Positions 1,873 through 39,831 of a DNA stretch of 64,000 nucleotides are shown in pieces. Under the pieces are notes generated by a model. The model had not been told where the DNA came from. It did no database searches and was given only the letters and a program-made list of their open reading frames with translations. The translations under genes were made by a program, and so were the position numbers. Location: contig NZ_AP029048.1 of assembly GCF_040371545.1 (NCBI RefSeq), positions 868,001 to 932,000 on the forward strand. Reading direction: 5' to 3'. This DNA is from Synechococcus sp. M16CYN. Lineage in GTDB: Bacteria > Cyanobacteriota > Cyanobacteriia > PCC-6307 > Cyanobiaceae. Each line of letters begins with the position of its first letter. Within the stretch, counting starts at the first letter, position 1.

Positions 1873-4574
1873 CAACTTTTTCCTGGTCTAATTATGCGCA
1901 CGGCACTGGCTCGTAGACGCCCAGTTTTTGTGGTGGCTGGAAGTTTTTTTGCTGCTGGTTTCTTAGCGGCGGGTCTTTTTGTCGAATTTGCCTTACTTAC
2001 TGCAGGTTTACGGCTTGTCTTCTTAGATGAGGCTTTAGTGGCCAAAAGCTCAATTGCCTCTTCGAGAGTAACATCCTCAGCTCCCTTACCTTCCGGAAGA
2101 GAAGCATTTAGCGTTCCTTGCTTTACATACAAACCGTAGGGTCCGTTATAAATCCGAACTGCATCTTCACTGCCTTCTGGCTTACCCAGATCTCGTAGAG
2201 CCGCACGTCCACCGCGACCCCGCTTCGGCATTGCCAAGAGCTCTAGGGCTCTGGTAAGACTAACGATCAGGACGTCGTCTTCTCCCTTAAGAGAGCGGTA
2301 ATCCTTCTCACTTTTACCCTTGTTCCATACTACGTAGGGCCCAAAACGACCCATTCCCGCCTGAATGCGGCCGCCGTCAGGATGATCTCCTAGAAGTCGT
2401 GGCAGTCTTAGAAGGCCTAGGGAATTCTCGAGGCTAAGGTCTTCGGGTTTTATGCTTTTAGGCAAAGACACTCGTTTAGGCTTGGGATTCTCATCGCTGA
2501 CCCAACCTCGCTGTACGTAAGGGCCATACTGTCCAAAGAGCAAATACACTAGGTCGCCGGTTTCTGGATCCTCACCGAGAGCCTCAGGCCCATTCGCTTT
2601 TTGTTTCAGAAGCAGTTCGACTTGCTCTTGATCAAGGTCCGCTGGAGTTGTTTCACGGGGGAGTGTCACTTTAATTAACTCCTCGTCACCGTCTTTACTG
2701 ATGCGTTTCGACTCGAGATACGCACCAAATCGACCGATGCGCACCACGCAGTTCAGCCCCTCAAGGTCAATTGTGCGAGAAGCACCCGGATCGATATCAC
2801 CCTCTCGTCGTTGAACTTGGGTCTCAAGACCCTGCTCACCTTTATAAAAACCTTCGAGATACGGGAGCCACGGCACCTTTCCATGAGAAATCTCATCGAG
2901 CGTATCCTCCATCCGTGCTGTAAAGCCGGTATCCACCAGATCAGGAAAATGTTCCTCCAGTAATGCTGTTACAGCAAATGCTGTGAAGCTTGGTGTCAAG
3001 GAATTGTTTTGAATTGTGGCGTAGCCTCGATCGGCGATGGTTCCGATAATGGAGGCGTAGGTGGAGGGACGGCCGATGCCCTCTTTCTCCAGAATCTTCA
3101 CCAGAGAAGCCTCACTGAATCGCTCTGGCGGCTGGGTTTGATGTCCCAATGCTTCCACTTCTTTCAGCTTGGGAGCATCTCCTACGGCGAGAGCAGGCAG
3201 AATTACCTCCTGTTCTTCTAGGGCTGCATCGGGATCATCACTTCCTTCAACGTAGGCGCGGAAGAAACCAGGAAAGTCGATGCGCTTGCCACTGGCTCGA
3301 AATTTGGCACCTGCGCATCTGAGATCTACAGAGAGCATGGTGAGTCGGGCCTCCGCCATCTGACTGGCGACTGTGCGCTTCCAAATCAACTCGTACAATG
3401 TCAGATCACGACCATCGAGACCTGTTTCTCCTGGGGTACGAAATTTTTCTCCCGCAGGACGGATCGCTTCATGGGCTTCCTGTGTGTTACGTGCTTTGGT
3501 GCTGAATTTGCGGGCTACCCGGCTCAAATAGTCCTTGCCATACAAGGTTTGTACACAGCTTCTGGAGGCACTAATTGCTTGGTCAGAGAGATGAACGGAA
3601 TCTGTTCGCATGTAAGTGATGAAACCTCGTTCGTACAAACCCTGAGCACAACGCATTGTTTCTCGTGCAGAAAGCCGTAGCTTGCGATTGGATTCTTGTT
3701 GGAGGGTGCTGGTAGTAAACGGGGGCACCGGCTTACGCACCGTCGGTTTTTCCTCAACGGCATTCACTTTCCAAGCGCTTTGACGCACCTTATCGGTCAG
3801 CGCTCTGGCTTCGTCCTCATGAAGCAGTTGCACATTGGATCCAGCTTTCAACTCACCAGTACTTTCATCAAAATCACTACCCGTCGCTATGCGACACCCC
3901 CCTAAGTGGGTGAGTTTTGCTTCAAAGCTGCTCCCGGCTTGCCTCAATTTGGCCTTGAGATCCCAATAATTACCGCTGCAAAATGCTCTTCGAGCTCGTT
4001 CGCGCTGAACCAGTAGACGCACAGAGACCGATTGAACACGACCAGCAGAAAGTCCCCAGGCTACTTTTTTCCACAGCAACGGCGAAAGCGTATAGCCCAC
4101 CAGGCGATCCAGGATCCGACGCGTCTCTTGCGCATGCACCAACTCCATATCGAGATCACGTGTTTGATCAAGAGCCTTGCCGATAGCTTCCTTAGTGATC
4201 TCGTGAAATACCATTCGCCTTACCGGTACCTTCGGGGCCAAAAGCTGCAGGAGATGCCAACTAATGCTCTCGCCTTCGCGGTCTTCATCAGTAGCCAGCA
4301 AAAGCTGGTTTGCATCTTTCAAAGCATCTTTCAATTCTCGGACAATTTTCTTTTTGTCCTTTGGTACCACATACAAGGGCTCAAACTCGGCCTCAATATT
4401 TACACCTAGGTTCGCCCATTTTTGGCCTTTAGCGGTCGCGGGAATCTCACTGGCGTTGTTGGGTAAATCCCGAACATGACCCATGGATGCCTCGACTTTG
4501 AATCCTTTTGGAAGGAATCCGCGAATGGTGCGGGCCTTCGTAGGGCTCTCAACGATGACGAGGGTGTGCGCCAC
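1872..4574 (-). CDS. topA: DNA topoisomerase I (type IA)
   Basis: This 900-residue enzyme relaxes negative supercoils by passing one strand through a transient single-strand break. The N-terminal TOPRIM domain has VIVESPTKA and the acidic TDEDREGE (residues 95-102). The active-site tyrosine is Tyr321 in GFITYMRTDSVHLS. The C-terminal third carries several cyanobacterial-type repeats with the pattern FGxYV (GRFGAYLES, YGPYVQRG, GRFGPYVVW, YGLYVKQG) and no four-cysteine zinc fingers, then a Lys/Ala-rich tail. Length is normal for cyanobacterial TopA. It is the first gene of a leftward cluster, divergent from ndhB across about 120 bp that must hold both promoters. Confidence 0.97.
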   Translation of the reverse strand: MAHTLVIVESPTKARTIRGFLPKGFKVEASMGHVRDLPNNASEIPATAKGQKWANLGVNIEAEFEPLYVVPKDKKKIVRELKDALKDANQLLLATDEDREGESISWHLLQLLAPKVPVRRMVFHEITKEAIGKALDQTRDLDMELVHAQETRRILDRLVGYTLSPLLWKKVAWGLSAGRVQSVSVRLLVQRERARRAFCSGNYWDLKAKLRQAGSSFEAKLTHLGGCRIATGSDFDESTGELKAGSNVQLLHEDEARALTDKVRQSAWKVNAVEEKPTVRKPVPPFTTSTLQQESNRKLRLSARETMRCAQGLYERGFITYMRTDSVHLSDQAISASRSCVQTLYGKDYLSRVARKFSTKARNTQEAHEAIRPAGEKFRTPGETGLDGRDLTLYELIWKRTVASQMAEARLTMLSVDLRCAGAKFRASGKRIDFPGFFRAYVEGSDDPDAALEEQEVILPALAVGDAPKLKEVEALGHQTQPPERFSEASLVKILEKEGIGRPSTYASIIGTIADRGYATIQNNSLTPSFTAFAVTALLEEHFPDLVDTGFTARMEDTLDEISHGKVPWLPYLEGFYKGEQGLETQVQRREGDIDPGASRTIDLEGLNCVVRIGRFGAYLESKRISKDGDEELIKVTLPRETTPADLDQEQVELLLKQKANGPEALGEDPETGDLVYLLFGQYGPYVQRGWVSDENPKPKRVSLPKSIKPEDLSLENSLGLLRLPRLLGDHPDGGRIQAGMGRFGPYVVWNKGKSEKDYRSLKGEDDVLIVSLTRALELLAMPKRGRGGRAALRDLGKPEGSEDAVRIYNGPYGLYVKQGTLNASLPEGKGAEDVTLEEAIELLATKASSKKTSRKPAVSKANSTKRPAAKKPAAKKLPATTKTGRLRASAVRIIRPGKS

Positions 4575-4693: not shown

Positions 4694-6265
4694 ATGCCCG
4701 AGATGGGTGCTTTTCTTGTCGTTACCCAGGCCATGGCCGCTCCTGGTGAGTTGCTCAACCTTTCCCCGAACGCCTTAGCAGTCCTGCCAGAGGGTGCTGT
4801 TCTCGTAGCGATGATCGCCACCTTGCTTGTAGATCTTGCTGGCGAAACAGTCGCTGCGCGTTGGGCCCCACCGATCTGCTACTTCGGACTTGGTGGGGCC
4901 CTGGTGCTATTGGCGCTGCAATGGAATACACCGCTGGAACCATCGTTTCTTGGTGCGTTTCTGGCTGATAATCTGGCGGTCGCATTTCGTGCGGTGATCG
5001 CCACATCAACCTTGCTGTCATTGCTGATCAGCTGGAGATACGCAGAAAAAGGTGGTACCCCCGTAGGTGAATACGCCGCCATCCTTTTAGCATCGACTCT
5101 TGGAGCAATGCTGCTTTGTGGTGCAACTGATCTAGTCAGCATCTTCATTTCATTAGAGACCCTGTCCATTGCTAGTTACCTGCTCTCCGGATACATGAAG
5201 CGGGATGCTCGCAGTTCTGAAGCTGCACTTAAATATCTATTGGTGGGCTCAGCAGCGGCAGCGGTATTTCTTTACGGAGCATCCCTTCTGTATGGGTTTA
5301 GCGGCAGCACCAACCTTGAGGTTATTGGCGTAGCCCTACAAACCAGTACAACACCCCTGGCGGCCTTATCTCTAGTTTTTGTACTTGCAACAGTGGCCTT
5401 CAAAATTGCTGCGGTTCCGTTTCATCAATGGACACCTGATGTCTATGAAGGCTCACCAACCCCTGTAGTTGCCTTTCTTTCCGTGGGCTCGAAAGCCGCT
5501 GGCTTTGCACTGGCATTACGTATCTTAGTTGGTTGTTTTGGCGCTTTCGACAGTCAGTGGAAACTTCTCTTTACTGTTCTTGCTGTGCTGAGCATGACTC
5601 TAGGCAACGTTGTTGCTTTAGCTCAGACATCGATGAAGCGAATGTTGGCTTATAGCTCAATCGGGCAAGCCGGGTTTGTAATGATTGGAATGGTATGCGG
5701 AACAGAAGATGGCTTTGCCGCGATGGTGCTCTACATGGCGGCCTACCTCTTCATGAATCTTGGTGCATTCGCTTGTATCATCTTATTTTCGATCAGCACC
5801 GGGAGTGATCGAATATCTGATTATGCGGGCCTTTATCAGAAAGATCCATTGATCACACTTGGACTTAGTCTTTGTTTGCTCTCACTGGGAGGTATTCCCC
5901 CGATGCTGGGATTTTTCGGCAAAATTTATTTGTTTTTTGCCGGATGGGCAAATCATGAATATCTGCTTGTCATCGTAGGATTAGTTACTTCGGTTGTATC
6001 AATTTATTACTATATTTCTGTGATAAAGATGATGGTTGTAAAAGAACCCCATGAAGCTTCTGATGTTGTTAAAAACTATCCCACGGTGGACTGGTCATTG
6101 ATGGGTATGCAGCCTCTACGGGTAGCCTTGATCAGCTGTGTTGCTGTAACAGCTGTGGGTGGAATTCTCTCGAACCCGCTCTTCCAGTGGGCCAATACTG
6201 CTGTATCTGAAACGCCTCTACTACAACAAGCTATTGCTGTGGCCAGCGGTAGGAACCTTGGCTAG
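4694..6265 (+). CDS. ndhB: NAD(P)H-quinone oxidoreductase subunit 2
   Basis: This 523-residue polytopic protein is the proton-pumping, antiporter-like subunit 2 of cyanobacterial NDH-1 in the thylakoid membrane, used in cyclic electron flow, respiration and CO2 uptake. About 14 hydrophobic helices are visible. Family motifs include [37 protein letters not shown] and [16 protein letters not shown]. The start MPEMGAF matches the N-terminal style of marine Synechococcus NdhB. It stands apart from other ndh genes, as is common in this group. The stop overlaps the probable start of the following ABC ATPase gene, which suggests co-transcription of the two without implying related function. Confidence 0.96.
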
Positions 6266-6965
6266 GGCTGATTCCCGGGTAATTGCTGAATTGCAGGGTG
6301 TCAATAAGATTTATGGCTCTGGCGATCTGGAGGTAAGGGCTCTTGACTGTCTCGATCTTGTAGTTCGAGAGGGCGATTATCTAGCTGTGATGGGTGCTAG
6401 TGGGTCTGGAAAAAGCACAGCTATGAATATACTTGGTTGCCTTGATCGTCCTACCAGTGGCAGCTACCGCCTTAACAATATGGCGGTCGACCAATTTGAT
6501 GAGGACGCCTTAGCGGATGTGCGCAATCGTTCGTTGGGATTTGTTTTTCAACAATTTCATTTGCTTCCCCATGCAACGGCGATGGATAACGTAATGCTAC
6601 CGATGGTTTACGCTGGTGTAGGACCCGATGAGCGTCAATCGCGCGCACGAGCTGCTCTCGAGAGAGTAGGACTAAAACGATGCTTAAATAACAGACCTAA
6701 TCAACTATCCGGAGGGCAACAACAACGAGTAGCCATCGCGCGAGCAATTATCAATCAGCCTAGTTTGTTGTTAGCGGATGAACCGACCGGTGCCTTAGAT
6801 TCTCACACTACAGAAGGAGTCCTCGAACTTTTCGATGAGCTTCACGAACAAGGGATCACGTTCGTGATGGTTACCCATGAAGACGATGTTGCTGCCCGAG
6901 CACGACAAATCGCACGCTTCCAAGACGGTCGCATTATCGAAATCAGTAGGTCTTTCCGTAAGTAA
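6258..6965 (+). CDS. ABC transporter ATP-binding protein (DevA/MacB/LolD-like)
   Basis: The protein has all ATPase motifs: Walker [11 protein letters not shown]-loop [11 protein letters not shown], signature LSGGQQQR, Walker [13 protein letters not shown] and the switch histidine in VMVTHE. The subfamily is the one that powers lipoprotein, glycolipid or antimicrobial-peptide efflux systems. The open frame extends upstream to 6159 inside ndhB, but the fold starts at [12 protein letters not shown], so I chose the TTG at 6258, preceded by AGGAA and overlapping the ndhB stop by 8 nt. No ATG gives a sensible N-terminus. No permease or membrane-fusion gene is adjacent, so the partner is elsewhere or lost. 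Confidence 0.85.
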
Positions 6966-7114
6966 TCAGGGGACTATTCTTTAAGCAACCTGAGCAGTTC
7001 CCATGGTCACTAAGGTATAGCAATCCCTATAAGATCGGTACGTACATCACACAGTAGCGATCGCTGAGACAACCTTTTAATCACAAACACCGATCGCATC
7101 TATCAAGCTGCAGA

Positions 7115-7256
7115 TCACTCTCCCTTGGGCAGATTAGAAGTGAGATAGTTAGGCAACGTTAGTACTAAACGACTACCACGACAGTCTTCGACATTAAGAA
7201 CCCGCTCAGTTTACGCCTTTGCAAGCTGAATTGAAATTCCTACAACAATAAACGAA
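7115..7256 (-). pseudogene. Remnant of a sensor histidine kinase C-terminus
   Basis: Read leftward, one frame gives VVGISIQLAKA, then a TAA stop (plus 7211-7213), then TERVLNVEDCRGSRLVLTLP and NYL, ending at a TGA. This resembles the end of the HATPase_c domain of histidine kinases: the G2 box (GxGLxLxK), an ERxxGxIxVES-like segment and the final GSRFxLxLP. The middle 'nGG' portion is deleted and the glycine box is degraded (GIS instead of GxG), so the gene is dead. No phosphoacceptor region was found upstream. The identification rests on a short motif and is tentative. Confidence 0.5.
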
Positions 7257-7294
7257 TTGGTTACAGTTCAATTGACTTAACAATACAATAAATG

Positions 7295-7386
7295 AGTCTG
7301 GCGACTAGCATCAGCGATTCGGATTTTACATTACTTTCATTGCAGCATTGAGACTAATCTAAGACGCCTCTAGAAGTCGCCAGACT
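7295..7386. repeat. 12-bp perfect inverted repeat enclosing 68 bp
   Basis: AGTCTGGCGACT at 7295-7306 is exactly complementary to AGTCGCCAGACT at 7375-7386. The arms are GC-richer than their surroundings. The enclosed 68 bp has no open frame of note. It could be the terminal stem of a structured RNA of about 92 nt or a residue of a mobile element; there is no transposase or target duplication visible. Confidence 0.5.
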
Positions 7387-7675
7387 GTTCATTGTTCAGT
7401 ACAAAGATTTGAGTGTTAATAGACTAGGATTTACTATCCAAAAATAAATTTTTTCTAGAGTTAATAGTCTGCTTAATTTACATTTTTAGTTCTTGCTAAA
7501 AATATTTAAACTAACAGCAAAATTATCTTAGTTAAGATTAAGTTGAGGGACAAAATTTAAAAGCAGAAGAAATTCATTAGTTTTTTACTGATATATAATT
7601 CACTATAAAAGTCCGAAAAACTATTATAAAAAATCTTATGCTCTATTTGTTAAAATTAATTATAATTCTGCTATA

Positions 7676-7783
7676 TTAGTCAAGTTACTAATTAAAAAGA
7701 TAATTAATAGCATTTTTACCAAATATTTTTTCAGAATAAGGTAAAATTGTTAATAACCTTATTACTAATAATAACTTGACTAA
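7676..7783. repeat. Nested AT-rich inverted repeats
   Basis: TTAGTCAAGTTA (7676-7687) pairs perfectly with TAACTTGACTAA (7772-7783). Inside, AATAAGGT (7735-7742) pairs with ACCTTATT (7756-7763). The two stems are nested, giving a possible stem with an internal hairpin. AT-rich DNA produces such matches by chance more easily, so its meaning is uncertain. Confidence 0.4.
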
Positions 7784-8251
7784 CAAACTAAACCAAAGCG
7801 GAAAATCGCTATTTCTTTTACATAGAATGGATTGAGAAATAATAGTAAAGATAAACTCTTAATAAGATTAGCTGCTTGTTTCAGCTCATACGCTGTATAT
7901 AGAGATCTTAATTATTCTTGACCGTGATTTCTAAAATTTTACCAGAGTAGCGAACAGTAAGTAGTACGCTGTCACTCTAAACAAGTACTTATTTATTGCT
8001 TAGTAAATTAAAATAATGCATAATTGCAATATGTTTTTGATTAATGTTTGGCATTGATGAGAACGCTAACTCGGTTTATCCTTAAACAAATCTGTTTTTG
8101 TGATATAATTATTAACTCAAAATTTTTTGAAAAGCCTATTGATAATTGAATAAGCATGCCTAGGAGATTAAATAACTAGGCTACAGCAACATGTAAATAT
8201 GAATGAATAAATCTAGAAGGAATTGATTTAGAATATATAAAGCTCAAATGC

Positions 8252-29840: not shown

Positions 29841-29933
29841 CTGATGCCGCTACTTACACAACTGCCAATCTTAGGAGCAAACGGCCCCTATCTACCCGTG
29901 GTAACTGGTTTGAGCTACCAAAATAGGAAGGTT

Positions 29934-30007
29934 GCTCCCTTAGCTCAGCTGGATAGAGCAACTGCCTTCTAAGCAGTCGGTCGATGGTTCGAATCCATCA
30001 GGGAGCG
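29934..30007 (+). tRNA. tRNA-Arg (anticodon TCT)
   Basis: A complete cloverleaf is visible: acceptor GCTCCCT (29934-29940) with AGGGAGC (30000-30006) and G discriminator; D arm TAGCTCAGCTGGATAGAGC; anticodon arm ACTGC-CTTCTAA-GCAGT with TCT at 29968-29970; T arm GATGG-TTCGAAT-CCATC. CCA is not encoded. It reads AGA/AGG arginine codons. It marks the boundary between the dense block to the left and the low-GC island to the right. Confidence 0.97.
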
Positions 30008-30018
30008 TAGCCAGACAC

Positions 30019-30060
30019 ATTGCGGCATCTGGGGTTTTTCCTGGTTGCCGCAATTTTTTT
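30019..30060 (+). terminator. Intrinsic terminator after tRNA-Arg
   Basis: ATTGCGGCA (30019-30027) pairs perfectly with TGCCGCAAT (30046-30054), and the stem runs into a stretch of T residues (30053-30060). It lies about 12 nt after the tRNA. The loop is 18 nt. Confidence 0.85.
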
Positions 30061-30076
30061 AAGCGAATCGTTTCCA

Positions 30077-30187
30077 TCAGTTGAGATCGCTCAGAACTCT
30101 TGCAAACCCTTCAAGGTTATGCAGAATTTCATCAGAGTGACGTTCTCGGCCACAACGCGGGCAACCTGGCTGGAAAACATCGAGCAT
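30077..30187 (-). CDS. Possible small CxxC protein, perhaps part of a frameshifted gene
   Basis: A 36-residue leftward frame, MLDVFQPGCPRCGRERHSDE then ILHNLEGFARVLSDLN, looks like a half zinc-ribbon plus an amphipathic helix. Just upstream (to about 30335, another frame) is a hydrophobic stretch, AIPLLLLVVAYSVLSPYAWR, followed by RLEAHLVAAVILM, so the two may be pieces of one gene split by a frameshift. The rightward frame across the same DNA begins inside the tRNA terminator and is less credible. Family unknown. Confidence 0.35.
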   Translation of the reverse strand: MLDVFQPGCPRCGRERHSDEILHNLEGFARVLSDLN

Positions 30188-30895
30188 AAACGCGATCGCC
30201 TGCGGGTTGTTTCATCAGAATTACCGCCGCGACCAGATGAGCCTCAAGGCGCTGGCGCCAAGCGTAGGGTGATAAGACGCTATAAGCCACCACCAGGAGC
30301 AGTAAGGGTATTGCAGGCGGTCGCCGAAGCTGCACGGATTTTCGATGCTGTTACGAAGAGTACCTTTAAGTGGCCCGATCCAAATGGACTTAATGCCTAC
30401 AGTCCTGCGCATTTGATATCCAAAGCGCTGCAGACGTTGATAACGGCACTCAAAGGCGAATTACTGGGCAAAAAGCTGATCTAACGTAACGCACATGGGT
30501 AAGACGTATCCGCCTTATTCCGACAAATTGATCATTTTTTCGCTAGCCAGCAGCGCTAGGCCTCAGATGCCGCGTTGCTGAATACAGTGCTCTGCATCTG
30601 GGTTGCTAACACTAGAAGCAGGCAAATTGCCCACGACAAACTCAGGCGGCTGTGGAAGCAGGTGAAATAGGACTAGTTGGATCAAATCCGCAGCATGCGC
30701 GGTAATGATGCCGCTGCAAGACTTGTCGCAGGCATCGAAGATTTCGAGAATGACGAGATGATAAGGTGCACATGCACACCTAAACCGACGACAGACCTAC
30801 CGAAGTCAGCTTAGTATCGTGGGATGTACTGAAAAAAATTTGGTTTTTGACCAAAATAGCTGTAATTTTCTAGTATATTTTATTAGGAAGGCTAA

Positions 30896-31291
30896 CTGGT
30901 TTATAAGGTCAATCGCGAAACAGAATCGATTAAAGGCAAGGAAGGATTCCGTATCATTGGCGCCGCACCACTGGAATCATAGCCAGACGACTGCCACGAT
31001 TTCTACAAGTGGTGGAAACAGCACGAGATACCAAATGCCGCGCCCTTATGGACAAGGTCAACCCCTCCAGAGATCTTGACGCTGCAGCTGGAGAGACTTA
31101 AAAATCAACTCATCAATTATTGGCGCCGATTATCCAGAAGGTTGAACAACAGATTTTTGAGTGGCATGCGCTCTCGATCGCGAGCCCACAACACTAACAG
31201 CATCGCCAGTCTCAAGACCGACGCATGCCTGAAGGCAGCAGGGCAAAGCGAAAGGTTGCATTCAAGACTGAACCGCTTAGCTCAGAAATAA
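30896..31291 (+). pseudogene. Broken coding sequence of unknown family
   Basis: One frame is open for 28 codons (30896-30979), meets TAG at 30980, then stays open for 102 codons to a TAA ending at 31291. The product after the stop includes DDCHDFYKWWKQHEIPNAAP, LWTRSTPPEILTLQLERLKN and a very basic tail. Its base composition is closer to the normal genes than to the island, and there is no ATG at the front. I read it as a gene inactivated by a nonsense mutation and loss of its start. A TTG at 31076 could give a 71-residue product. A further possible remnant (RQIAHDKLRRLWKQVK, two stops, then LDQIRSMRGNDAAARLVAGI) lies at about 30600-30800. Confidence 0.45.
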
Positions 31292-31689
31292 TCTTTAGGC
31301 ATGGATAATCTCGTTACTATTCCCTATTGTCTTGCCTACACTATCAAATATAAATACAAAGGATAAAAATGCCTTGAGACTTGAGTTTATGCAGACTTCA
31401 TATGCTTTGAATACGGAATAATTACTATTTTATTTCGCTTTCTGTATATATTTTGTACTGGATATTTTAAAAGAAAATGCGATATAAGTGGCCGGCACTT
31501 AGTTTACATGAAATCTAGGTATTTTTGATATAATTAAGACAGTGCCAACGAAAAATCGCTACAGCAATTACAGAGACTGACTTAATACCTTCAGCAATAG
31601 ATGTGCGAGTATCTCTTATTCAACATGCGATAGCGCTCACGGCTTAAACACCAAAAGCGATAACTATGGCGATAAGATTCGATCGCAGC

Positions 31690-31839
31690 CTACTTGCGGT
31701 TCAGAAATTTCCAGCCTGCCCAGATGATCATGGCAAGAACAATCCAATTAAAAAAAGCTCGGAACACTGTTAAACCGATGAAAATCACCAACGCAGAGAC
31801 GACAGCATTCCTAATGATGGACTTGGAGCCATCAGTCAT
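31690..31839 (-). CDS. 49-residue small membrane protein
   Basis: A complete short leftward gene with ATG start and TAG stop. The product starts MTDGSKSIIRNAVVSALVIF, continues IGLTVFRAFFNWIVLAMIIW and ends AGWKFLNRK. The pattern is a charged N-terminus, about 35 hydrophobic residues (one long or two short membrane helices), and a basic C-terminus, as in genuine small membrane proteins. It lies in otherwise non-coding DNA. I recognise no family. Confidence 0.6.
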   Translation of the reverse strand: MTDGSKSIIRNAVVSALVIFIGLTVFRAFFNWIVLAMIIWAGWKFLNRK

Positions 31840-31941
31840 GTATTTCCAGCGGGGAATCAAAGCCAAGACGACACAAAGCTACTAAGTACTTTCTAAGTGC
31901 AACAGCACTGCGATTGAAGAAAGCTTATTCGCCACGACTTT

Positions 31942-32067
31942 CTACATGAGACACGCCAGATAGTATGCATTCTGTTTGCAGCTGTTGGGTCCCAAGCCAA
32001 CTGACCAATTGTTACGATGGGTGAGCGGTTGTTGACACCAATCGAGTTTGTCCAAATCAGGCGCCAT
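31942..32067 (-). CDS. Doubtful 41-residue small protein
   Basis: A leftward frame giving MAPDLDKLDWCQQPLTHRNN then WSVGLGPNSCKQNAYYLACL and M. The composition is balanced and protein-like, with codon use less AT-rich than the surroundings. No signal or known motif. A longer frame on the same strand (31893-32174) overlaps it in another phase and looks less natural. Either could be a chance frame. Confidence 0.3.
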   Translation of the reverse strand: MAPDLDKLDWCQQPLTHRNNWSVGLGPNSCKQNAYYLACLM

Positions 32068-33750
32068 CTTTTAACAGAAAGAACTGTGGCAAAAGGCAGT
32101 CTGTGACTGATATCTAGTAATTTCCTATGAGAGAAACAGTTTGCCCCTATTGGTTTTAGCAGGAAATCTCTCAATAACTAATGAGATTTCTTAACTGACC
32201 TTTCTTCTAATTACTTCCATCTAAATTTTTGTTCTTATCGATGACTTCTATAAATTATTATGAGATTCTTGTCTGCATTTCTAGATTTATTAATTAATAA
32301 ACAAATATAAATATGATGATCATAAGTTAATATTTAAGAATGATTTAAACTTTATATTAATTTTTAAAAATTAATATTTTTATAATTAGCAATGTAGTTG
32401 AGGAGTTTTAACATTTTAGAAAATATTCATTTATTGAAAAAATAATTAATCATATATAGCAATATTAATTAACTATCTTTTATTAGTTTAAAATATTGAG
32501 TAAAGTAAAATTACTAAAAACATTTTAATAATGGTAATAAATCTTATACAAGACAACAAGTTCGATTCTAATTATCCTAGTTATTAGTTTTGAAAACAAA
32601 AGTTAGTAAGAAAACAAACTATTTGCACTAAGATAGCTTATATAAGCAAATGGCATTGCTAACTCTAACTCTATCATCTTACCTTCTCATAAATTAGCAG
32701 ATTTGACTGAGCAAAAACTCAGAATAGTCTTAATATTAAAAGAATAAGAAATTTAATAGTTAAATTTTTATAAAAAATAGATACAAACTTAAACATCTAA
32801 TGAATGATACCATTTTTTATTAATAAGGAATAAACTCTTATCTTAAAATTATTGCTAGTTAAAAGATTACTTCTTAAATAGAATGGAAAGTTTATTGTAT
32901 AAATTTGGGTCACTTAATAAGTGAATCAAATTCTTGAAATAAGAGATAATAAATTTGTTTAAAATTATTGACTGCATAAACATAAGGTGAATCTTTTTAT
33001 TCAAGCTTATTTTTATCATTTTTTGATAATTAATGCTATCTTCAGTAGAATATAATATTAAAAGTGTGATCAATTTTTATTGAATATATACAAAGATGAA
33101 GAAACTTTTAGAAATTAGAAGACTTAATAGGATCCAGTTTTTTCTTGAAACTTTTATTGTTAAATTGAGTACAAATGCTTATAGCATCTTGTTACCGGAC
33201 TTCTCTAGAACGCAGTTAGTCGAAAAGCATCGCAAGTGGAAGTTCACACAGCTCATGCCCATCCAATGGGTACTTTGATCATTGAGGGGCGTCATAAACC
33301 TTTCCAAGCTTTGGCTTGCCCATTAAATCCAAAAACAACCCTTGTCAGCAAAAAGAAGTAGTTATTTGAGACAGGGTGCCCAATCAATGATGAGTTTTGT
33401 CAACAGATCTATGTCCTAGACGCTAAGATAAGCAAAAAGCTATGAGGCTTATCTAGTCGAAAATCCCACCTGCATATCAGGTGGAACTGGATATTGAAAC
33501 GGTTTCTTAGGTAAGGAGGATTTTGTTTAATCCACAACCACTTTTTAGTAGATGTTATCACGGTTTATCGTAACAAAGATTAGGGTTGCATGCAGTTAGA
33601 TTTAGATAAGTGAAAGTGGTTTTTGAGATTAATAACTAGAAAAGAGAAATCTTACTCGATGAGAATTCTTAATGGTGTTTTTTGATATTAATGGCTAACC
33701 TCAAAATAAAGTAATTTACTAGGATAGTTAAGTAACTGAAGAGTAAAAGA
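32068..33750. other. Very AT-rich gene desert with one coding remnant
   Basis: From about 32200 to 33090 the DNA is overwhelmingly A and T, with stops in every frame. A short hairpin (GAAATCTC/GAGATTTC) lies at 32163-32190. At 33096-33278 a frame encodes a basic 60-residue peptide; at 33200-33361 a different phase reads VHTAHAHPMGTLIIEGRHKP then FQALACPLNPKTTLVSKKK before TAG. Together they look like one frameshifted short gene. At 33509-33520 an AAGGAGG sequence precedes a TTG with only a 16-codon frame. No RNA gene is recognised apart from the hairpin pair listed below. Confidence 0.5.
33426..33484. ncRNA. Two adjacent hairpins, possible structured RNA
   Basis: AGATAAGC (33426-33433) pairs with GCTTATCT (33447-33454), and 12 nt later CCACCTG (33466-33472) pairs with CAGGTGG (33478-33484) around CATAT. 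The second stem is GC-rich in a very AT-rich setting. Neither is followed by a T-run, so they are not simple terminators. They might belong to a small RNA or to the 3' region of the broken gene ending at 33361. Confidence 0.3.
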
Positions 33751-34065
33751 TTAGCTACTACATATTCGCCTTAATAAATCAGGAGTTTTGACCTTCTGTT
33801 CAGAGATTTCCTCGATCATGGTTTCAATTTTGCTAATCACATGAACGTCTATTTTTTTAACAACGCTATGTATTTTCCATAAACCTACTTGTTTTTCTGA
33901 CCTCGAATATGTCACTTGCCAAGCATCTTTGACGGGAGTTACAGTGATCTGAGTCCAGAAAAACTTGCTTTCATCATTCAGATAGAGAAAATACTTGATA
34001 GAGCCATCTTTCCCTTCTTTTTTGCAAAATCCTAATTCCTCAAGACGAGAGTCTAAATCCATCAT
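33751..34065 (-). CDS. Hypothetical protein
   Basis: A 104-residue product starting MMDLDSRLEELGFCKKEGKD. The sequence alternates charged and hydrophobic residues like a small alpha/beta domain: SIKYFLYLNDESKFFWTQIT, VTPVKDAWQVTYSRSEKQVG, LWKIHSVVKKIDVHVISKIE. It has no signal peptide, membrane segment or known motif. Codon composition is AT-rich like the island. It is followed on the same strand by nothing recognisable, and preceded by the secreted hypothetical at 34186-34449. It is one of the few full-size frames here and probably a real lineage-specific gene. Confidence 0.6.
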   Translation of the reverse strand: MMDLDSRLEELGFCKKEGKDGSIKYFLYLNDESKFFWTQITVTPVKDAWQVTYSRSEKQVGLWKIHSVVKKIDVHVISKIETMIEEISEQKVKTPDLLRRICSS

Positions 34066-34185
34066 AGCAACTTTAATTACTTTGAATGACCTGATGCCTT
34101 GTATATTATACTCACAGTAACAGCTTCAAATCTAGATTGATTAATTCAAATTGTATTTACGCAGAGTTAACATAAACCAAGACTC

Positions 34186-34449
34186 CTAGCTGCTAGCAGC
34201 TAGGGCTCTCTGATGGATGCTTTGCATAGTATTTTTCAGACTAGCTACATCCCGTAAACCATTGACATCAAACCATGGCGCTATAGACCAATCAAAACCT
34301 TCACCGAAGGTACTGTCCGGGGCGACCACATACCAATGACAATTCACGTCTGGGACATCTATAGCACATTTTGACCAATCGTCTTGCCACTGGGGCACCT
34401 GAACCCACATGATCGCCGCAAAAACCAGCGTAAAGAGGCTTTGTAGCAT
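34186..34449 (-). CDS. Hypothetical secreted or anchored small protein
   Basis: An 87-residue product. MLQSLFTLVFAAIMWVQVPQ forms a hydrophobic signal or anchor, and the rest is polar with several tryptophans and one Cys pair (WSKCAIDVPDVNCHWYVVAP; GFDWSIAPWFDVNGLRDVAS). The two cysteines 10 residues apart could form a disulfide in the periplasm. GC content is nearer to normal genes than to its flanks. No family is recognised; the role is unknown. Confidence 0.62.
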   Translation of the reverse strand: MLQSLFTLVFAAIMWVQVPQWQDDWSKCAIDVPDVNCHWYVVAPDSTFGEGFDWSIAPWFDVNGLRDVASLKNTMQSIHQRALAASS

Positions 34450-35122
34450 AAATCCTTATGAGAATATAAGGCTTGAAGCTTAGCACCTACTTCAACATGC
34501 TAAAAGTAGCATAACAAACCATATTATTAGCTTATTGATAACGTCTTCCTATACTGTTTCTTAATGATTATGCTATCAATAATTTTGCATAAATAATACT
34601 CAGAATATCAATCAATCAGTTGACGATTCTTATTTCATCTCTCACTACTATTACAGTGCACCCCTTCAGCTTGTCCAATCATGCAAAGATACATATTTGA
34701 TGGTGAAGTTTTTCTTTGCGTTTGCAGTAGTTAGTCCTAGAATGATTGATTAATTTGCAGCCAATCAAAATAAGGTATGTATATTTCTTCGCAGCTTTTT
34801 TAACATGGGTATATAAATTGCTATAGCAAAGGGAAGTAGTAAGACACTGCAGCAGTGTAATAATGAAACCTTTCGCGATGTTAGCATAACTTCTACTAAA
34901 TTAGATATTAGTAAATCTGATATTTATTGCTGGATTGATCTAGTTATTTATCTTATCTTGGTAAGGATAAATCAATCTATTACTTTGTAGCAAAGTAATA
35001 CTATACTTAATGATAACTAGAAATGCAATAGCTTCAAAAGGTGAAGTCATTTATTTCTAGTTTTGCCAAGCATGAACTCATGAAACTTACTAGTAACTCA
35101 GCAAAATCTCTATATGATTCAG
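34450..35122. other. AT-rich intergenic DNA
   Basis: No gene is visible. Apart from the hairpin cluster listed at 34933-35062 there is a small palindrome ACACTG-CAG-CAGTGT near 34845-34860. Short frames of up to 17 codons occur on both strands without support. Confidence 0.5.
34933..35062. ncRNA. Cluster of three hairpins, possible structured RNA
   Basis: GATTGAT (34933-34939) pairs with ATCAATC (34971-34977); ATTACTTTG (34979-34987) pairs perfectly with CAAAGTAAT (34991-34999) around TAG; AACTAGAAAT (35015-35024) pairs with ATTTCTAGTT (35053-35062), which runs into two further T residues. Three consecutive stems in 130 bp are suggestive, but AT-rich stems arise easily by chance. Strand and function are unknown. 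Confidence 0.3.
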
Positions 35123-35254
35123 TTAACGACGAATCAAACGCACTGCCACAATAATCGCTAATAATACAAGAAACCAAGTTAATAGATTAAGTTGGAAAGT
35201 AATGGCTACAATAAGTCCCAAAATAAAAAACAGTAGGAAACAACCCAATGTCAT
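35123..35254 (-). CDS. 43-residue small membrane protein
   Basis: A leftward frame from ATG to TAA. The product starts MTLGCFLLFFILGLIVAITF, continues QLNLLTWFLVLLAIIVAV and ends RLIRR. Two hydrophobic helices with a short polar turn and a basic C-terminal anchor are a common layout for small membrane proteins. It lies 15 nt downstream of another short frame on the same strand, as in an operon. No Shine-Dalgarno sequence is obvious. No known family; AT-rich DNA can mimic hydrophobic proteins, so it needs comparison with relatives. Confidence 0.5.
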   Translation of the reverse strand: MTLGCFLLFFILGLIVAITFQLNLLTWFLVLLAIIVAVRLIRR

Positions 35255-35269
35255 GAAAATTTTATAGAG

Positions 35270-35389
35270 TCATTCCATCAAAGCCGATACAGAAGCATAA
35301 TGAAAGGTTATTGGGCATGCCTTAAGAATCGATAAAGCTGTATTGTCCGGTTTCCTCAAATATTTTGGGACATGGATAGTACTGCACAT
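35270..35389 (-). CDS. 39-residue small protein upstream of the small membrane protein
   Basis: A leftward frame from ATG to TGA reading MCSTIHVPKYLRKPDNTALS then ILKACPITFHYASVSALME. The amino acid mix (Pro, His, Lys, Cys, Ala) is not what AT-rich noise would give, which favours a real gene. It ends 15 nt before the 43-residue membrane protein. No domain is recognised. Confidence 0.45.
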   Translation of the reverse strand: MCSTIHVPKYLRKPDNTALSILKACPITFHYASVSALME

Positions 35390-36387
35390 AGTATTGAGTG
35401 ATCTAATTAACTTAATAACAGTGTAAATCTTTTTTCTAGTTGATAGGAAACGCTTTTCTACTTCTATACAGCTCGATAGAAAAACTATCTTTATTTAATG
35501 TAATTCTAATTTACAATAGACTTGACAACTGAACTAGATACCCAAACTATCGATTTTATAAAATTTTTATTCTGTTCATACACTTTATTTCAGGAGGAGA
35601 AATTATAACCACTGAGTTTATATCTATAAAAGTAACTAGAAGAATGATAGAAGCTTTTTTAATTCAGTATCTTGATTAACAGTTAGGTAAAAACAGAGTC
35701 TGGTAACCTAAGATGTATATATTATCTTTCTAGGCCTAGCACCGGTAAGCACATCTGGAAAATCTATTTCAACCAAATCAAGCAAGTTTCTAATATTTAG
35801 TGTTATTTTTTAGTTTTTCTCGTTGATCGAAGACTTTTGCTTCATACTGCCTATCTCAACGTTGAATCTTTCATTTGCTAAACTAGGCATAAAGTGCAGA
35901 AAAGAAATCTTTGGTTATAGACTAGATTCACAGATACTTATTAATTAATACATACTAATGCAATTCTATACAAAAACATCATCAGTATTTAACTTTTTAT
36001 AACCTAACGACCAAAGATGCTGAGAGCAGAAATCTATATACTTGAAATTCAATTAATTTAATTATGACTAAATATATCAACTGTTATAAGCACTTTAATA
36101 GTTAAATACCTTTAGTTTTAGGACCTAGCTATTTGTTAAGTTTCCATTTGTGTCTATATTTTATTTTCACTTGTGTCAAGTGATTGATCGGTTACAATAA
36201 GTAAAGAAACTAAATTTGATCATTCCAGAAATGACGCTACTTCGTTCATGCGGCAATTATCATGCTTGCTGATTCACCAAAGCTATTATCATAGACATGA
36301 TGATTATTACTCAATTGTAAAGAAACAATTCTAAAAAAAGAAAAAACAACGTCAGTTCGACTACAAATTCATCAAGACAGCACGATC
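35390..36387. other. AT-rich gene desert upstream of the prohibitin-like gene
   Basis: About 1 kb without a convincing gene. A strong AGGAGG occurs at about 35594-35600 but precedes no ATG. A 26-residue leftward frame (35810-35890, MPSLANERFNVEIGSMKQKS start) is doubtful. The last 150 bp must contain the promoter of the prohibitin-like gene; I cannot pick one -10/-35 pair with confidence. Confidence 0.5.
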
Positions 36388-36432
36388 ATGGCTACACAAT
36401 TCAACATTTTTGATTTAAAGATACACCGATGA
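36388..36432 (+). CDS. Possible 14-residue leader peptide
   Basis: ATG at 36388 opens a 14-codon frame, MATQFNIFDLKIHR, whose TGA overlaps the ATG of the prohibitin-like gene (ATGA). The arrangement would allow translational coupling or leader-peptide control. It could also be chance. Confidence 0.3.
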   Translation: MATQFNIFDLKIHR

Positions 36433-37226
36433 TCCAAACTCCCCGACCTATCAATGATCCTGCTAACACGCTAATTGTGCTTGTAGCGGTTGTGCTGACT
36501 ACAGTCTTACTCGCCGGCCAAGCCTTATTTATTGTTCCAGCTGGCAAAGTCGCCGTAGTTACAACTCTAGGAAAAGTGAGTGGAGGTTCTCGTTTACCTG
36601 GACTGAATCTTAAAATACCGCTTCTACAATCAGTTTATCCTTTCGATGTACGTACACAAGTTCGGCCGGAAGAATTTGCTACGCTCACAAAGGATCTTCA
36701 GGTTATTGAAGCCACGGCTACTATGAAATACGCGGTTCGACCTAATGAGGCTGGCCGCATTTATCGGACAATCGCAGGCAACGATCGTGATATCTACCCT
36801 CGTATCATACAACCTTCGCTTTTGAAAGCTCTCAAATCAGTTTTCTCTCAATATGAGTTAGTTACAATTGCCACGGAGTGGAACGATATATCTGCTATAG
36901 TTGAGCGCACTGTAGCAGATGAGCTTAACAAATTTGATTATGTTGAAGTCCGAGGACTTGATCTAACCGGTCTACAAATTGCGGAAGAATATCGCGCTGC
37001 AATTGAACAGAAACAAATTGCTGAGCAGCAGCTCTTGCGCGCCCAAACGGAGGTAAAAATCGCTGAGCAAGAGGCAATTCGATACAATACTCTGAACCGT
37101 AGTTTAGACGACCAAGTATTATTCAAGCTTTTTCTTGATAAATGGGATGGGAAAACAGAGGTTGTACCAGCACTTCCTGGCAGCTTGGGCAACACACCAT
37201 CAGTAATTGTGGGCCGTCGAAATTAG
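36429..37226 (+). CDS. Prohibitin/SPFH (band 7) family protein
   Basis: A 265-residue protein with one N-terminal membrane helix (ANTLIVLVAVVLTTVLLAGQ) and a band 7 domain: VPAGKVAVVTTLGKVSGGSR, LPGLNLKIPLLQSVYPFDVR, then ATATMKYAVRPNEAGRIYRT. The following helical part, rich in Ala, Glu and Gln (EEYRAAIEQKQIAEQQLLRA), forms the coiled coil for ring assembly. Prohibitin-like proteins scaffold membrane microdomains and regulate FtsH proteases, which in cyanobacteria act in photosystem II repair. That fits its position 1.4 kb from psbA, but no functional link is shown. It is the only clear full-size rightward gene in the island. Confidence 0.9.
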   Translation: MIQTPRPINDPANTLIVLVAVVLTTVLLAGQALFIVPAGKVAVVTTLGKVSGGSRLPGLNLKIPLLQSVYPFDVRTQVRPEEFATLTKDLQVIEATATMKYAVRPNEAGRIYRTIAGNDRDIYPRIIQPSLLKALKSVFSQYELVTIATEWNDISAIVERTVADELNKFDYVEVRGLDLTGLQIAEEYRAAIEQKQIAEQQLLRAQTEVKIAEQEAIRYNTLNRSLDDQVLFKLFLDKWDGKTEVVPALPGSLGNTPSVIVGRRN

Positions 37227-38520
37227 TTAGTAAAAATGTAATAAATAATTAAAATAACTCTCTAGAAACAAAAAATTTTCCGCAGTTTAATATTCATAGA
37301 AATTTGATTACGATACCTAAATTTTTTGACTAATATTTATGTCGACTATTAGTATTCTTGTTAAGTACTTTTATTCCCGTAAAGTTGTAATATTTACGAA
37401 TTTGAGCAGTGTTTAAAAATAAAAAACTTTTTTCTGCATCTTAACTGTTTTAAGGATTAGAATAGTTACTATTATATCACTGGTAAATTTTAATCTAGTT
37501 ATATTATTTAATAATTTTTAATTATTGACATATTTTTAAAGAGTTATAGCATGTTACTATTAGCATACTGAGAGCAAGCATTCTAATAATTTTATGATTT
37601 TAATCATATGTTTATAGTTATAAATAACATAAATATGCTACCACATGCTTGATTAGAATTATTATAATCTATAATTGTCAATTAACCTTAATTACATAGA
37701 TACAGCTATAAGCATTAATATTATTCTATATTAGAATGTATCTAAAATAAAAAACAGTACTAAATATGAAAATTAAAAGCTTGAATTATAATAAGATTAT
37801 CTCACCTCGCTCTAAAGATTAAATTAACTAATAGTAACAAGAGCAATGAGTATGTTAATTACAAACTTATGTCAGGATATCATTAGAAGCAACGATAATA
37901 AAATAAAAAACTAACAGTGGACTTTTGCTATCAATTAATATTGACTGATTCAAAATTATCTAATAGAAATCTCAATTAATTTAAATCTAGATTAATAGCA
38001 TTTGGAATTAATCATAATCTATTTACATTTACAAAAATATTTATGGTATTCAACTTATTATTAATCTAATTAATAAGCTATTAGATAGAATAATAGTAGA
38101 TCTTTAAATAAAATTATACATAGATTTGTAATCAGCTTCTTATTTTATAAGAAGCTGATTACAGCATAAAATGCTGTTATAATATTATCTAAAATAACAC
38201 ACTATTTAATATACTTTTCTATAGCTAACATGCATCAAGAAGGTTTCATCAAAAATCAAGGTTTTAAAGATTTTTAAAAGACAGTTAAAACTAAATAGCT
38301 ATGTATTTATAATTAAGATTTAGATAAAAATATAACTGTATCAGGTTCACATAAAATCTATCGTTTTGCAATCTAGGAAGAGGTTCGTTCATGCATTAAT
38401 TGTCCCATCTTAAAGACGCCTTAAACTAAAAGTGAATCATAAGTCTCTATGATACTATAGTGTCTAATCACAAGAATTAATCAAGGGTAAAGATTGATAA
38501 AGGAAACAGAGTAGAAAAGT
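37227..38520. other. Extremely AT-rich gene desert between prohibitin-like gene and psbA
   Basis: About 1.3 kb almost entirely A and T, with no frame longer than chance. The only strong structure is the double hairpin at 38128-38177. The end near 38400-38500 becomes somewhat less AT-rich before the psbA terminator. I see no tRNA and no recognised small RNA. Confidence 0.6.
38128..38177. repeat. Tandem perfect hairpins (16 bp and 7 bp)
   Basis: GTAATCAGCTTCTTAT (38128-38143) pairs perfectly with 38147-38162 around a TTT loop. Immediately after, ACAGCAT (38161-38167) pairs with ATGCTGT (38171-38177) around AAA, sharing two bases with the first stem. No T-run follows on either strand. A 16-bp stem with three-base loop is far from chance expectation. 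It could be a repeat element, an mRNA-stabilising structure or a DNA cruciform. Confidence 0.7.
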
Positions 38521-38550
38521 AAAAAAACCTCCGTCAGAAGACGGAGGTTT
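38521..38550 (-). terminator. psbA intrinsic terminator
   Basis: On the minus strand, an 11-bp perfect stem (arms 38540-38550 and 38525-38535) with loop TTCT is followed by a run of seven T residues (38527-38521). It lies about 57 nt after the psbA stop. A second weaker hairpin (GGTTTCG/CGAAACC, 38555-38583) lies between stop and terminator. Confidence 0.92.
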
Positions 38551-38606
38551 GGGAGGTTTCGGGTGATTCGGTTAATCGAAACCGGGCTGTCTACATTGAC
38601 TTTAGA

Positions 38607-39702: not shown

Positions 39703-39716
39703 GTCCTCGAAAGGAC
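39703..39716 (-). promoter_or_regulatory. psbA leader hairpin with TTCG loop
   Basis: On the minus strand GTCCT-TTCG-AGGAC forms a perfect five-bp stem (39716-39712 with 39707-39703) ending 16 nt before the psbA ATG. The AGGA inside the right arm would be hidden when the stem forms. A second stem, GGGCAGG with CCTGTCC (one G-U pair), lies just upstream around 39730-39750. Both could influence translation or stability of psbA mRNA; this is inference. A TTTACA and a CAATAT lie farther upstream as possible promoter elements. Confidence 0.45.
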
Positions 39717-39831
39717 GGTTTAGGGAAGGGACAGGAAGCCCTGCCCAAGGCGACTGTAAAGCAATATTGCGTTGTTTGGCAATACGCTTTGTAAATCGAA
39801 TTGCAAGAACCGCTTCGTGCTCTACTAGCCG

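What the first reader, a model, noticed from the sequence alone, without database searches (positions are those of the whole stretch)
30077..35389. Series of very short leftward reading frames in the AT-rich island
Seven candidate genes of 36-104 codons (30077-30187, 31690-31839, 31942-32067, 33751-34065, 34186-34449, 35123-35254, 35270-35389) all lie on the minus strand. Several have plausible protein character: two membrane types, one secreted and one CxxC. Most are below usual gene-calling limits. A consistent strand over 5 kb and an operon-like pair suggest an undescribed set of small proteins rather than noise.
Basis: partly seen in the sequence, partly recalled or inferred. Interest (0 to 1): 0.62.

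Follow-up and report, generated by a model that had tools for sequence, protein, structure and literature searches.

The report
Four real small genes, three spurious
Of seven tiny candidate genes in an AT-rich stretch of a cyanobacterium that lives with a dinoflagellate, four are real, conserved genes that survived genome shrinkage and three are noise; one of the real ones belongs to a family that ocean viruses carry beside their photosynthesis genes.

Summary
The seven minus-strand frames exist, but their number and strand bias alone are barely above chance. Homology splits them. For 33751 and 34186 pN/pS is 0.14-0.32 in frame against 1.0-2.1 out of frame. Three (30077, 31942, 35270) have no credible relative, so the CxxC protein and the 'operon-like pair' fall away.

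By size the genome is CregCyn, the reduced symbiont of Citharistes regius. Free-living sisters keep 33751-34186-35123-band7 in the same order at 45-47% GC, with further small genes and a DUF389 gene not found here. So the 'island' is mainly an eroded ancestral region with survivors, beside a relic of a tRNA-Arg integrative element; it is not an imported small-protein set.

34186-34449 is a host member of cyanophage family T4-GC_438 (phrog_1187), labelled 'carboxylesterase' although no profile supports that. It occurs in 181 phage records; in 42 of 46 viral contigs with enough DNA it follows psbD. I infer a small membrane-anchored photosystem helper. Gene status is firm; this function is a hypothesis.

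The parts
29933..30008 (+). tRNA-Arg (TCT), integration site in related strains
   Evidence: ARAGORN, Rfam; partial 3' copies in G027, G014, G010
30009..31689 (.). relic DNA of a tRNA-Arg integrative element (inferred); 30011-30480 and 30604-30936 have relatives
   Evidence: 70-77% nucleotide identity to two G010 contigs
30077..30187 (-). s1: 36-codon frame, judged spurious
   Evidence: 1 of 38 other genomes, 20 residues, E 0.04; lies in relic DNA
31690..31866 (-). s2: 58-aa membrane-type protein gene, start TTG 31866
   Evidence: 21 of 23 same-genus genomes at E<=0.01; 17 of 19 relatives viewed have ATG at the aligned start
31942..32067 (-). s3: 41-codon frame, judged spurious
   Evidence: 5 of 38 other genomes, best E 0.003, 25-36 residues, scattered
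33751..34065 (-). s4: 104-aa conserved protein gene
   Evidence: 9 of 33 same-genus genomes; pN/pS 0.24-0.32 in frame
34186..34449 (-). s5: 87-aa gene, host member of cyanophage family T4-GC_438 / phrog_1187
   Evidence: 26 of 33 same-genus genomes; phrog_1187 E 8.7e-44; pN/pS 0.14-0.22 in frame
35123..35254 (-). s6: 43-aa membrane-type protein gene
   Evidence: 16 of 23 same-genus genomes at E<=0.05; syntenic in four sisters
35270..35389 (-). s7: 39-codon frame, judged spurious
   Evidence: 0 of 38 other genomes
35255..36428 (.). AT-rich spacer (30% GC) where sisters have two more small genes
   Evidence: the 85-aa one is not found in the own genome
36429..37226 (+). band-7 / SPFH protein gene, syntenic neighbour
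   Evidence: PF01145 E 8.3e-32
37227..38606 (.). AT-rich spacer (24% GC) where sisters have a DUF389 gene
   Evidence: not found in the own genome
38607..39686 (-). psbA (photosystem II D1)
   Evidence: 99% identical to psbA in G006 and G014

Best explanation
Supported: the stretch is the eroded remainder of a small-gene-rich chromosomal region beside a tRNA-Arg integration site in a reduced marine picocyanobacterial genome. Genes that the sisters still have are gone, the freed DNA drifted to 24-31% GC, and s4, s5, s6 and the neighbouring band-7 gene survive under purifying selection; s2 is a conserved gene at the edge of relic DNA of a tRNA-Arg element. The other three frames are noise. Supported: s5 is a host member of a family that cyanophages carry, mostly right behind psbD. 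Inferred (about 0.35): s5 makes a short protein with an N-terminal membrane helix or signal and two conserved cysteines that acts at the thylakoid or in its lumen in support of the photosystem II reaction-centre proteins under stress or infection, much as Hli proteins are thought to, and is not an esterase. Inferred: s2 and s6 are small integral membrane proteins and s4 a small soluble alpha-beta protein. The score is for the anatomy and gene status, not for the s5 function.
For: Gene status: relatives with open frames; in-frame against shifted-frame ratios for s4 and s5, band-7 as a control gene. Erosion: same order in G006, G014, G027 and, from s5 on, G004; of 22 ORFs taken from G006, 19 have relatives in sister loci and 4 in the window (some of the 22 overlap and cannot all be genes); DUF389 and an 85-aa gene not found in the own genome; s4-to-band7 GC 0.33 here, 0.45-0.47 in three sisters. 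Identity: contigs of 1,940,073 and 17,326 bases fit CregCyn's 1.94 Mbp chromosome and ~17 kbp plasmid. Phage link: phrog_1187, 181 phage records, a D2 match ending 0-441 bases upstream in 42 of 46 viral loci with at least 630 bases upstream, psbA/psbD/hli cluster in 5 of 7 annotated phage regions viewed.
Against: In 2 of 7 annotated phage regions and 4 of 46 viral loci the s5 relative lies away from photosystem genes, and the 80 viral loci are the best matches of 519, not a random draw. Of 11 host loci tested, only that of G014 has psbA within the fetched stretch; in G006 it lies just past it. The s5 model is poor (pLDDT 53.6), so place and fold are not shown. Synonymous sites are near saturation between the window and its sisters (pS 0.55-0.86). 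Ratios for s6 and s2 are weaker (window pairs 0.08-0.33 where computable) and had no shifted-frame control. Some s2 relatives are weak (25-30% identity, E up to 0.004) and one G016 copy has a stop inside. Two losses only were tested genome-wide, and the tool warns that an empty answer without a positive control shows nothing. No expression data.
Confidence: 0.83

Rival explanations
1. The stretch is an imported genomic island that carries an undescribed, co-working set of small proteins.
For: Low GC, a tRNA gene at one end, relic DNA related to other strains' tRNA-Arg elements, one s2 relative inside such an element in G027.
Against: s4, s5, s6 and band-7 are syntenic in free-living sisters at normal GC; the three genes are unlinked in G008; three of the seven frames have no relatives.
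Confidence: 0.06
2. All seven frames are chance frames in AT-rich DNA.
For: Counts and lengths are close to shuffles.
Against: Conserved open frames and in-frame constraint for s4 and s5, conserved frames for s2 and s6.
Confidence: 0.02
3. s5 is a true carboxylesterase that serves carbon metabolism in host and phage, as its phage annotation says.
For: Annotation of phage members and phrog_14182; counted under carbon metabolism in a review.
Against: 81-87 residues in most members seen; no esterase model in Pfam for 20 members nor in NCBIfam; no solved-structure match.
Confidence: 0.06
4. s5 serves phage and host in some general envelope or stress role (secretion, redox, nutrient stress) unrelated to photosystem II; its place behind psbD is a matter of phage gene cassettes.
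For: Other places in 2 of 7 phage regions and in the L130/L132-L134 lineage, where s5 lies amid structural genes; host copies lie in varied surroundings.
Against: 42 of 46 viral loci have D2 next to it and 5 of 7 phage regions the psbA/psbD/hli cluster.
Confidence: 0.45

Closest known systems
Cyanophage family T4-GC_438 / phrog_1187 and phrog_14182 ('carboxylesterase', 'esterase')
   Same: s5 matches both profiles and is 67.5% identical to the S-MbCM100 protein over 80 residues; same WVQVPQW ... C ... CHWY core.
   Different: s5 is a host copy and does not lie beside psbD; some phage forms have longer N-termini.
Cyanophage photosynthesis cargo genes (psbA, psbD, hli)
   Same: Phage relatives of s5 mostly lie in the same cluster on the same strand.
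   Different: s5 is not related to them in sequence as far as tested (no Pfam family) and its activity is unknown.
tRNA-targeted integrative elements of picocyanobacteria (tycheposons; the name and its meaning are recalled, the paper was not read)
   Same: In G027 a whole and a partial tRNA-Arg enclose an integrase, an AAA protein and an s2 relative.
   Different: The window keeps relic DNA only, with no integrase and no second tRNA copy in the window.
YbjN / SycT-like proteins (for s4)
   Same: Similar arrangement at Z 5.2-5.5.
   Different: No sequence match; such Z values are common by chance, CapZ chains score higher (7.2), and four of five models were poor.

Membership tests
T4-GC_438 / phrog_1187 (s5) | profile match over the family core | tested here: met
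   phrog_1187 E 8.7e-44, residues 3-79 of 87 on profile 2-78 of 80
T4-GC_438 / phrog_1187 (s5) | place in the psbA/psbD/hli cluster (phage members) | tested here: inconclusive
   phage: 5 of 7 annotated regions, 42 of 46 viral loci; host copy in the window is 4.2 kb from psbA
carboxylesterase (s5) | match to an esterase or hydrolase family model | tested here: not met
   no such Pfam model for 20 members at E<=0.1; no NCBIfam model for s5
carboxylesterase (s5) | esterase activity | not testable with these tools
   needs purified protein
tRNA-targeted integrative element (30009-31900) | tRNA target plus partial 3' copy at the far end | tested here: not met
   one copy only in the 64-kb window (own genome beyond it not searched); copies in G027, G014, G010
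tRNA-targeted integrative element (30009-31900) | integrase gene | tested here: not met
   no ATG frame of 100 codons in 30485-33750; no Pfam match for 30020-30481
acquired genomic island (33751-38606) | genes foreign to close relatives | tested here: not met
   s4, s5, s6, band-7 syntenic in sisters
YbjN / SycT-like fold (s4) | confident fold match | tested here: inconclusive
   no Foldseek match at E<=0.001; VIA Z 5.2-5.5

The most novel reading that the evidence does not exclude
s5 is an unrecognised photosystem II helper of picocyanobacteria: a tiny membrane-anchored, cysteine-paired protein that cyanophages took from hosts several times and placed behind psbD so that it is made with D1 and D2 during infection; its 'carboxylesterase' label has hidden it.
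Probability: 0.35. Interest if true: 0.72.

Novelty: new member of a known kind. Interest (0 to 1): 0.45.

Why it matters
It shows what is left of a small-gene-rich region when a free-living cyanobacterium becomes a symbiont, and which of its unnamed small genes selection keeps. It also singles out one of them, s5, as a gene shared by hosts and phages with a doubtful enzyme label and a mostly consistent place beside the phage photosystem genes, so that its part in infection can be tested in laboratory strains.

Tried and rejected
Chance test on frame number and strand: weak. Pfam for the seven frames: nothing but a sub-threshold DUF7575 hit of s1; NCBIfam for s2, s4, s5, s6: nothing; Pfam over alignments of s4 and s5: stray weak hits only. 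s4, s6, s2 in phage records: none; s4 in viral contigs: none confirmed. Structure of s5: too poor to search. Structure of s4: one of five models at pLDDT 71, no confident match; Argonaute, levivirus coat and CapZ rows taken as chance. Rfam: only the tRNA and PhotoRC-I reach the gathering score in the window; two further sub-threshold rows ignored. Promoter scan at chance level (20 found, 22.7 expected), terminators 2 against 1.7; one hairpin overlaps the end of s5. s2 as element cargo: true in G027, not tested for the other relatives, left open. Trees of s5 use 86 columns and resolve poorly; the bootstrap of the second had not settled; I use them only to say that phage rows do not form one group.

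Papers: PMC11150560 outline, sections 6, 8 and 10, and passages (its supplementary island list not seen); PMC3037559 passages; PMC10452541, PMC3686209, PMC5126843 passages; all others only in search listings. The s5 family was sought in print only; PMC3686209 lists a Prochlorococcus 'Carboxylesterase' cluster that may or may not be this family.
Full report
1. Observation. The seven frames are there. In 30009-36428 there are 14 minus and 6 plus ATG frames of at least 36 codons; 300 shuffles within 500-base blocks average 8.5 and 8.2, 3.7% reach 14 on the minus strand and 23% hold a frame of 104 codons or more. The pattern alone is weak.

2. Which are genes. Counting other genomes only: s4 (33751-34065) is in 9 of 33 same-genus and 0 of 25 further genomes; s5 (34186-34449) in 26 of 33 and 0 of 25; s2 (31690-31866) in 21 of 23 and 0 of 15 at E<=0.01, the weakest at 25-30% identity; s6 (35123-35254) in 16 of 23 and 0 of 15 at E<=0.05. 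In a wider draw of the family s5 is in 49 of 151 genomes, own included, and 16 of 59 genera. s3, s7 and s1 have 5, 0 and 1 of 38 others at E<=0.05, all short and weak. For s5, window against four sisters, pN/pS is 0.14-0.22 in frame and 1.04-2.08 in the two shifted frames; for s4 against three sisters 0.24-0.32 and 1.01-1.40; s2 and s6 had no such control. Among sisters dN/dS is 0.03-0.06 for s5 in five pairs (0.27 in the near-identical pair G006-G004), 0.06-0.12 for s4, 0.14-0.37 for s6 and 0.015-0.028 for the band-7 control. Synonymous sites are close to saturation against the window, so these values are rough.

3. Where we are. The genome has 1,957,399 bases, the large contig 1,940,073, which leaves 17,326. 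CregCyn, the symbiont of the dinoflagellate Citharistes regius, has a 1.94 Mbp chromosome and a ~17 kbp plasmid (PMC11150560, passages) and is sister to clade IV (section 6). I take the window to be CregCyn, an inference from size. G006 has the size that I recall for CC9902.

4. Erosion. G006, G014 and G027 have s4-s5-s6-band7 in the same order and relative strands; G004 has s5-s6-band7 on a contig that ends after s5. Of 22 ORFs that I took from G006 between the tRNA-Arg and the DUF389 gene, 19 have relatives in the sister loci and 4 in the window (s4, s5, s6, band-7); some of the 22 overlap and are not all genes. The DUF389 gene and an 85-aa gene between s6 and band-7 gave no match in the whole own genome (no positive control inside those calls, but both are found in sisters). 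From s4 to band-7 GC is 0.330 in the window and 0.462, 0.449, 0.468 in G006, G014, G027; from band-7 to psbA 0.242 over 1,380 bases against 0.516 over 2,684 in G006, coding DNA included. So the AT-rich character is derived. The paper reports genome reduction and islands (sections 8 and 10); its island list is in a supplement that I did not see.

5. The tRNA side. 30011-30480 (two pieces) and 30604-30936 are 70-77% identical to two G010 contigs; one of these matches follows a partial tRNA-Arg copy. In G027 a whole tRNA-Arg and a partial copy enclose about 10 kb with a tyrosine integrase, an AAA protein, a PLD-domain protein and an s2 relative. I read 30009 to about 31900 as the relic of such an element. 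The window has neither a second tRNA copy nor an integrase frame, so this is an inference.

6. s5 and phages. s5 matches phrog_1187 (E 8.7e-44) and phrog_14182 (E 1.3e-34, 'esterase') and is found in 181 of 50,697 phage records. It is T4-GC_438, 'Carboxylesterase', in 6 of 16 genomes in Table 3 of PMC3037559 (passages); a 2023 review lists carboxylesterase under carbon metabolism, 24 of 153 (PMC10452541, passages). Of the 80 best of 519 viral relatives, 48 hold a D1/D2 gene and in all 48 a D2 match ends 0-441 bases upstream of s5 (that the matching query is D2 follows). Of the 46 with at least 630 bases upstream 42 do so; the other four (L130, L132, L133, L134) form a separate type, and L132 has portal, holin-like and major head protein genes around s5. 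Of 7 annotated phage regions viewed, 5 have it in the psbA/psbD/hli cluster and 2 do not. In trees of 57 and 60 rows the phage label needs 4 and 5 changes, at least 3 forced by well-supported branches: several transfers are likely, with the caveat of short alignments.

7. Function. No Pfam, NCBIfam or solved-structure match supports an esterase. Invariant features of 20 host members include WVQVPQW, C28, C37 and CHWY. The model gives a helix 3-15 and a helix 64-86 at low confidence. The photosystem-helper role rests on phage gene neighbourhood; the host neighbourhood is mixed. For s4 one model suggests helix, five strands, helix with no confident fold match. s2 and s6 are hydrophobic by eye.

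8. Verdict. An ordinary explanation for the cluster (survivors in an eroded region, plus three chance frames), with one item worth following: s5.

Noticed in passing
window 29933-30008; L036:8498-8545; L035:5514-5559; L228 about 5100-5147: tRNA-Arg (TCT) looks like an integration site: three relatives carry partial 3' copies of it, with an integrase-bearing stretch in G027.
   Followed up: partly
L240:4964-5209; L241:4634-4879: G006 and G014 carry a second s5 copy that falls among phage sequences in the tree (branch 89/98, not starred), perhaps a phage-to-host transfer; in L240 it lies beside genes that look by eye like a phosphate ABC transporter.
   Followed up: partly
L132:1080-6664: A viral type with portal, holin-like and major head protein genes carries s5 amid them, unlike the psbD-linked phages.
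   Followed up: partly
L238:5864-6064; L239:5517-5717: An ORF that by eye resembles an Hli protein lies within 0.6 kb of s5 in two host genomes.
   Followed up: no
L100:780-1856 and 2510-3565: In phage S-MbCM100 the D1/D2 product names and the PsbA/PsbD notes are crossed; the 780-1856 gene matches host D1 at 96%, the other at 33%.
   Followed up: yes
window 39703-39746 (-): PhotoRC-I cis-regulatory RNA just upstream of psbA.
   Followed up: no
window 6966-8251: Another long gap without ATG frames of 100 codons, at 31% GC, perhaps a second eroded stretch.
   Followed up: no
L229:1155-1487 and 6242-6574: G010 contig C45 holds the relic-like sequence as two inverted copies with a 561-codon frame between them.
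   Followed up: no
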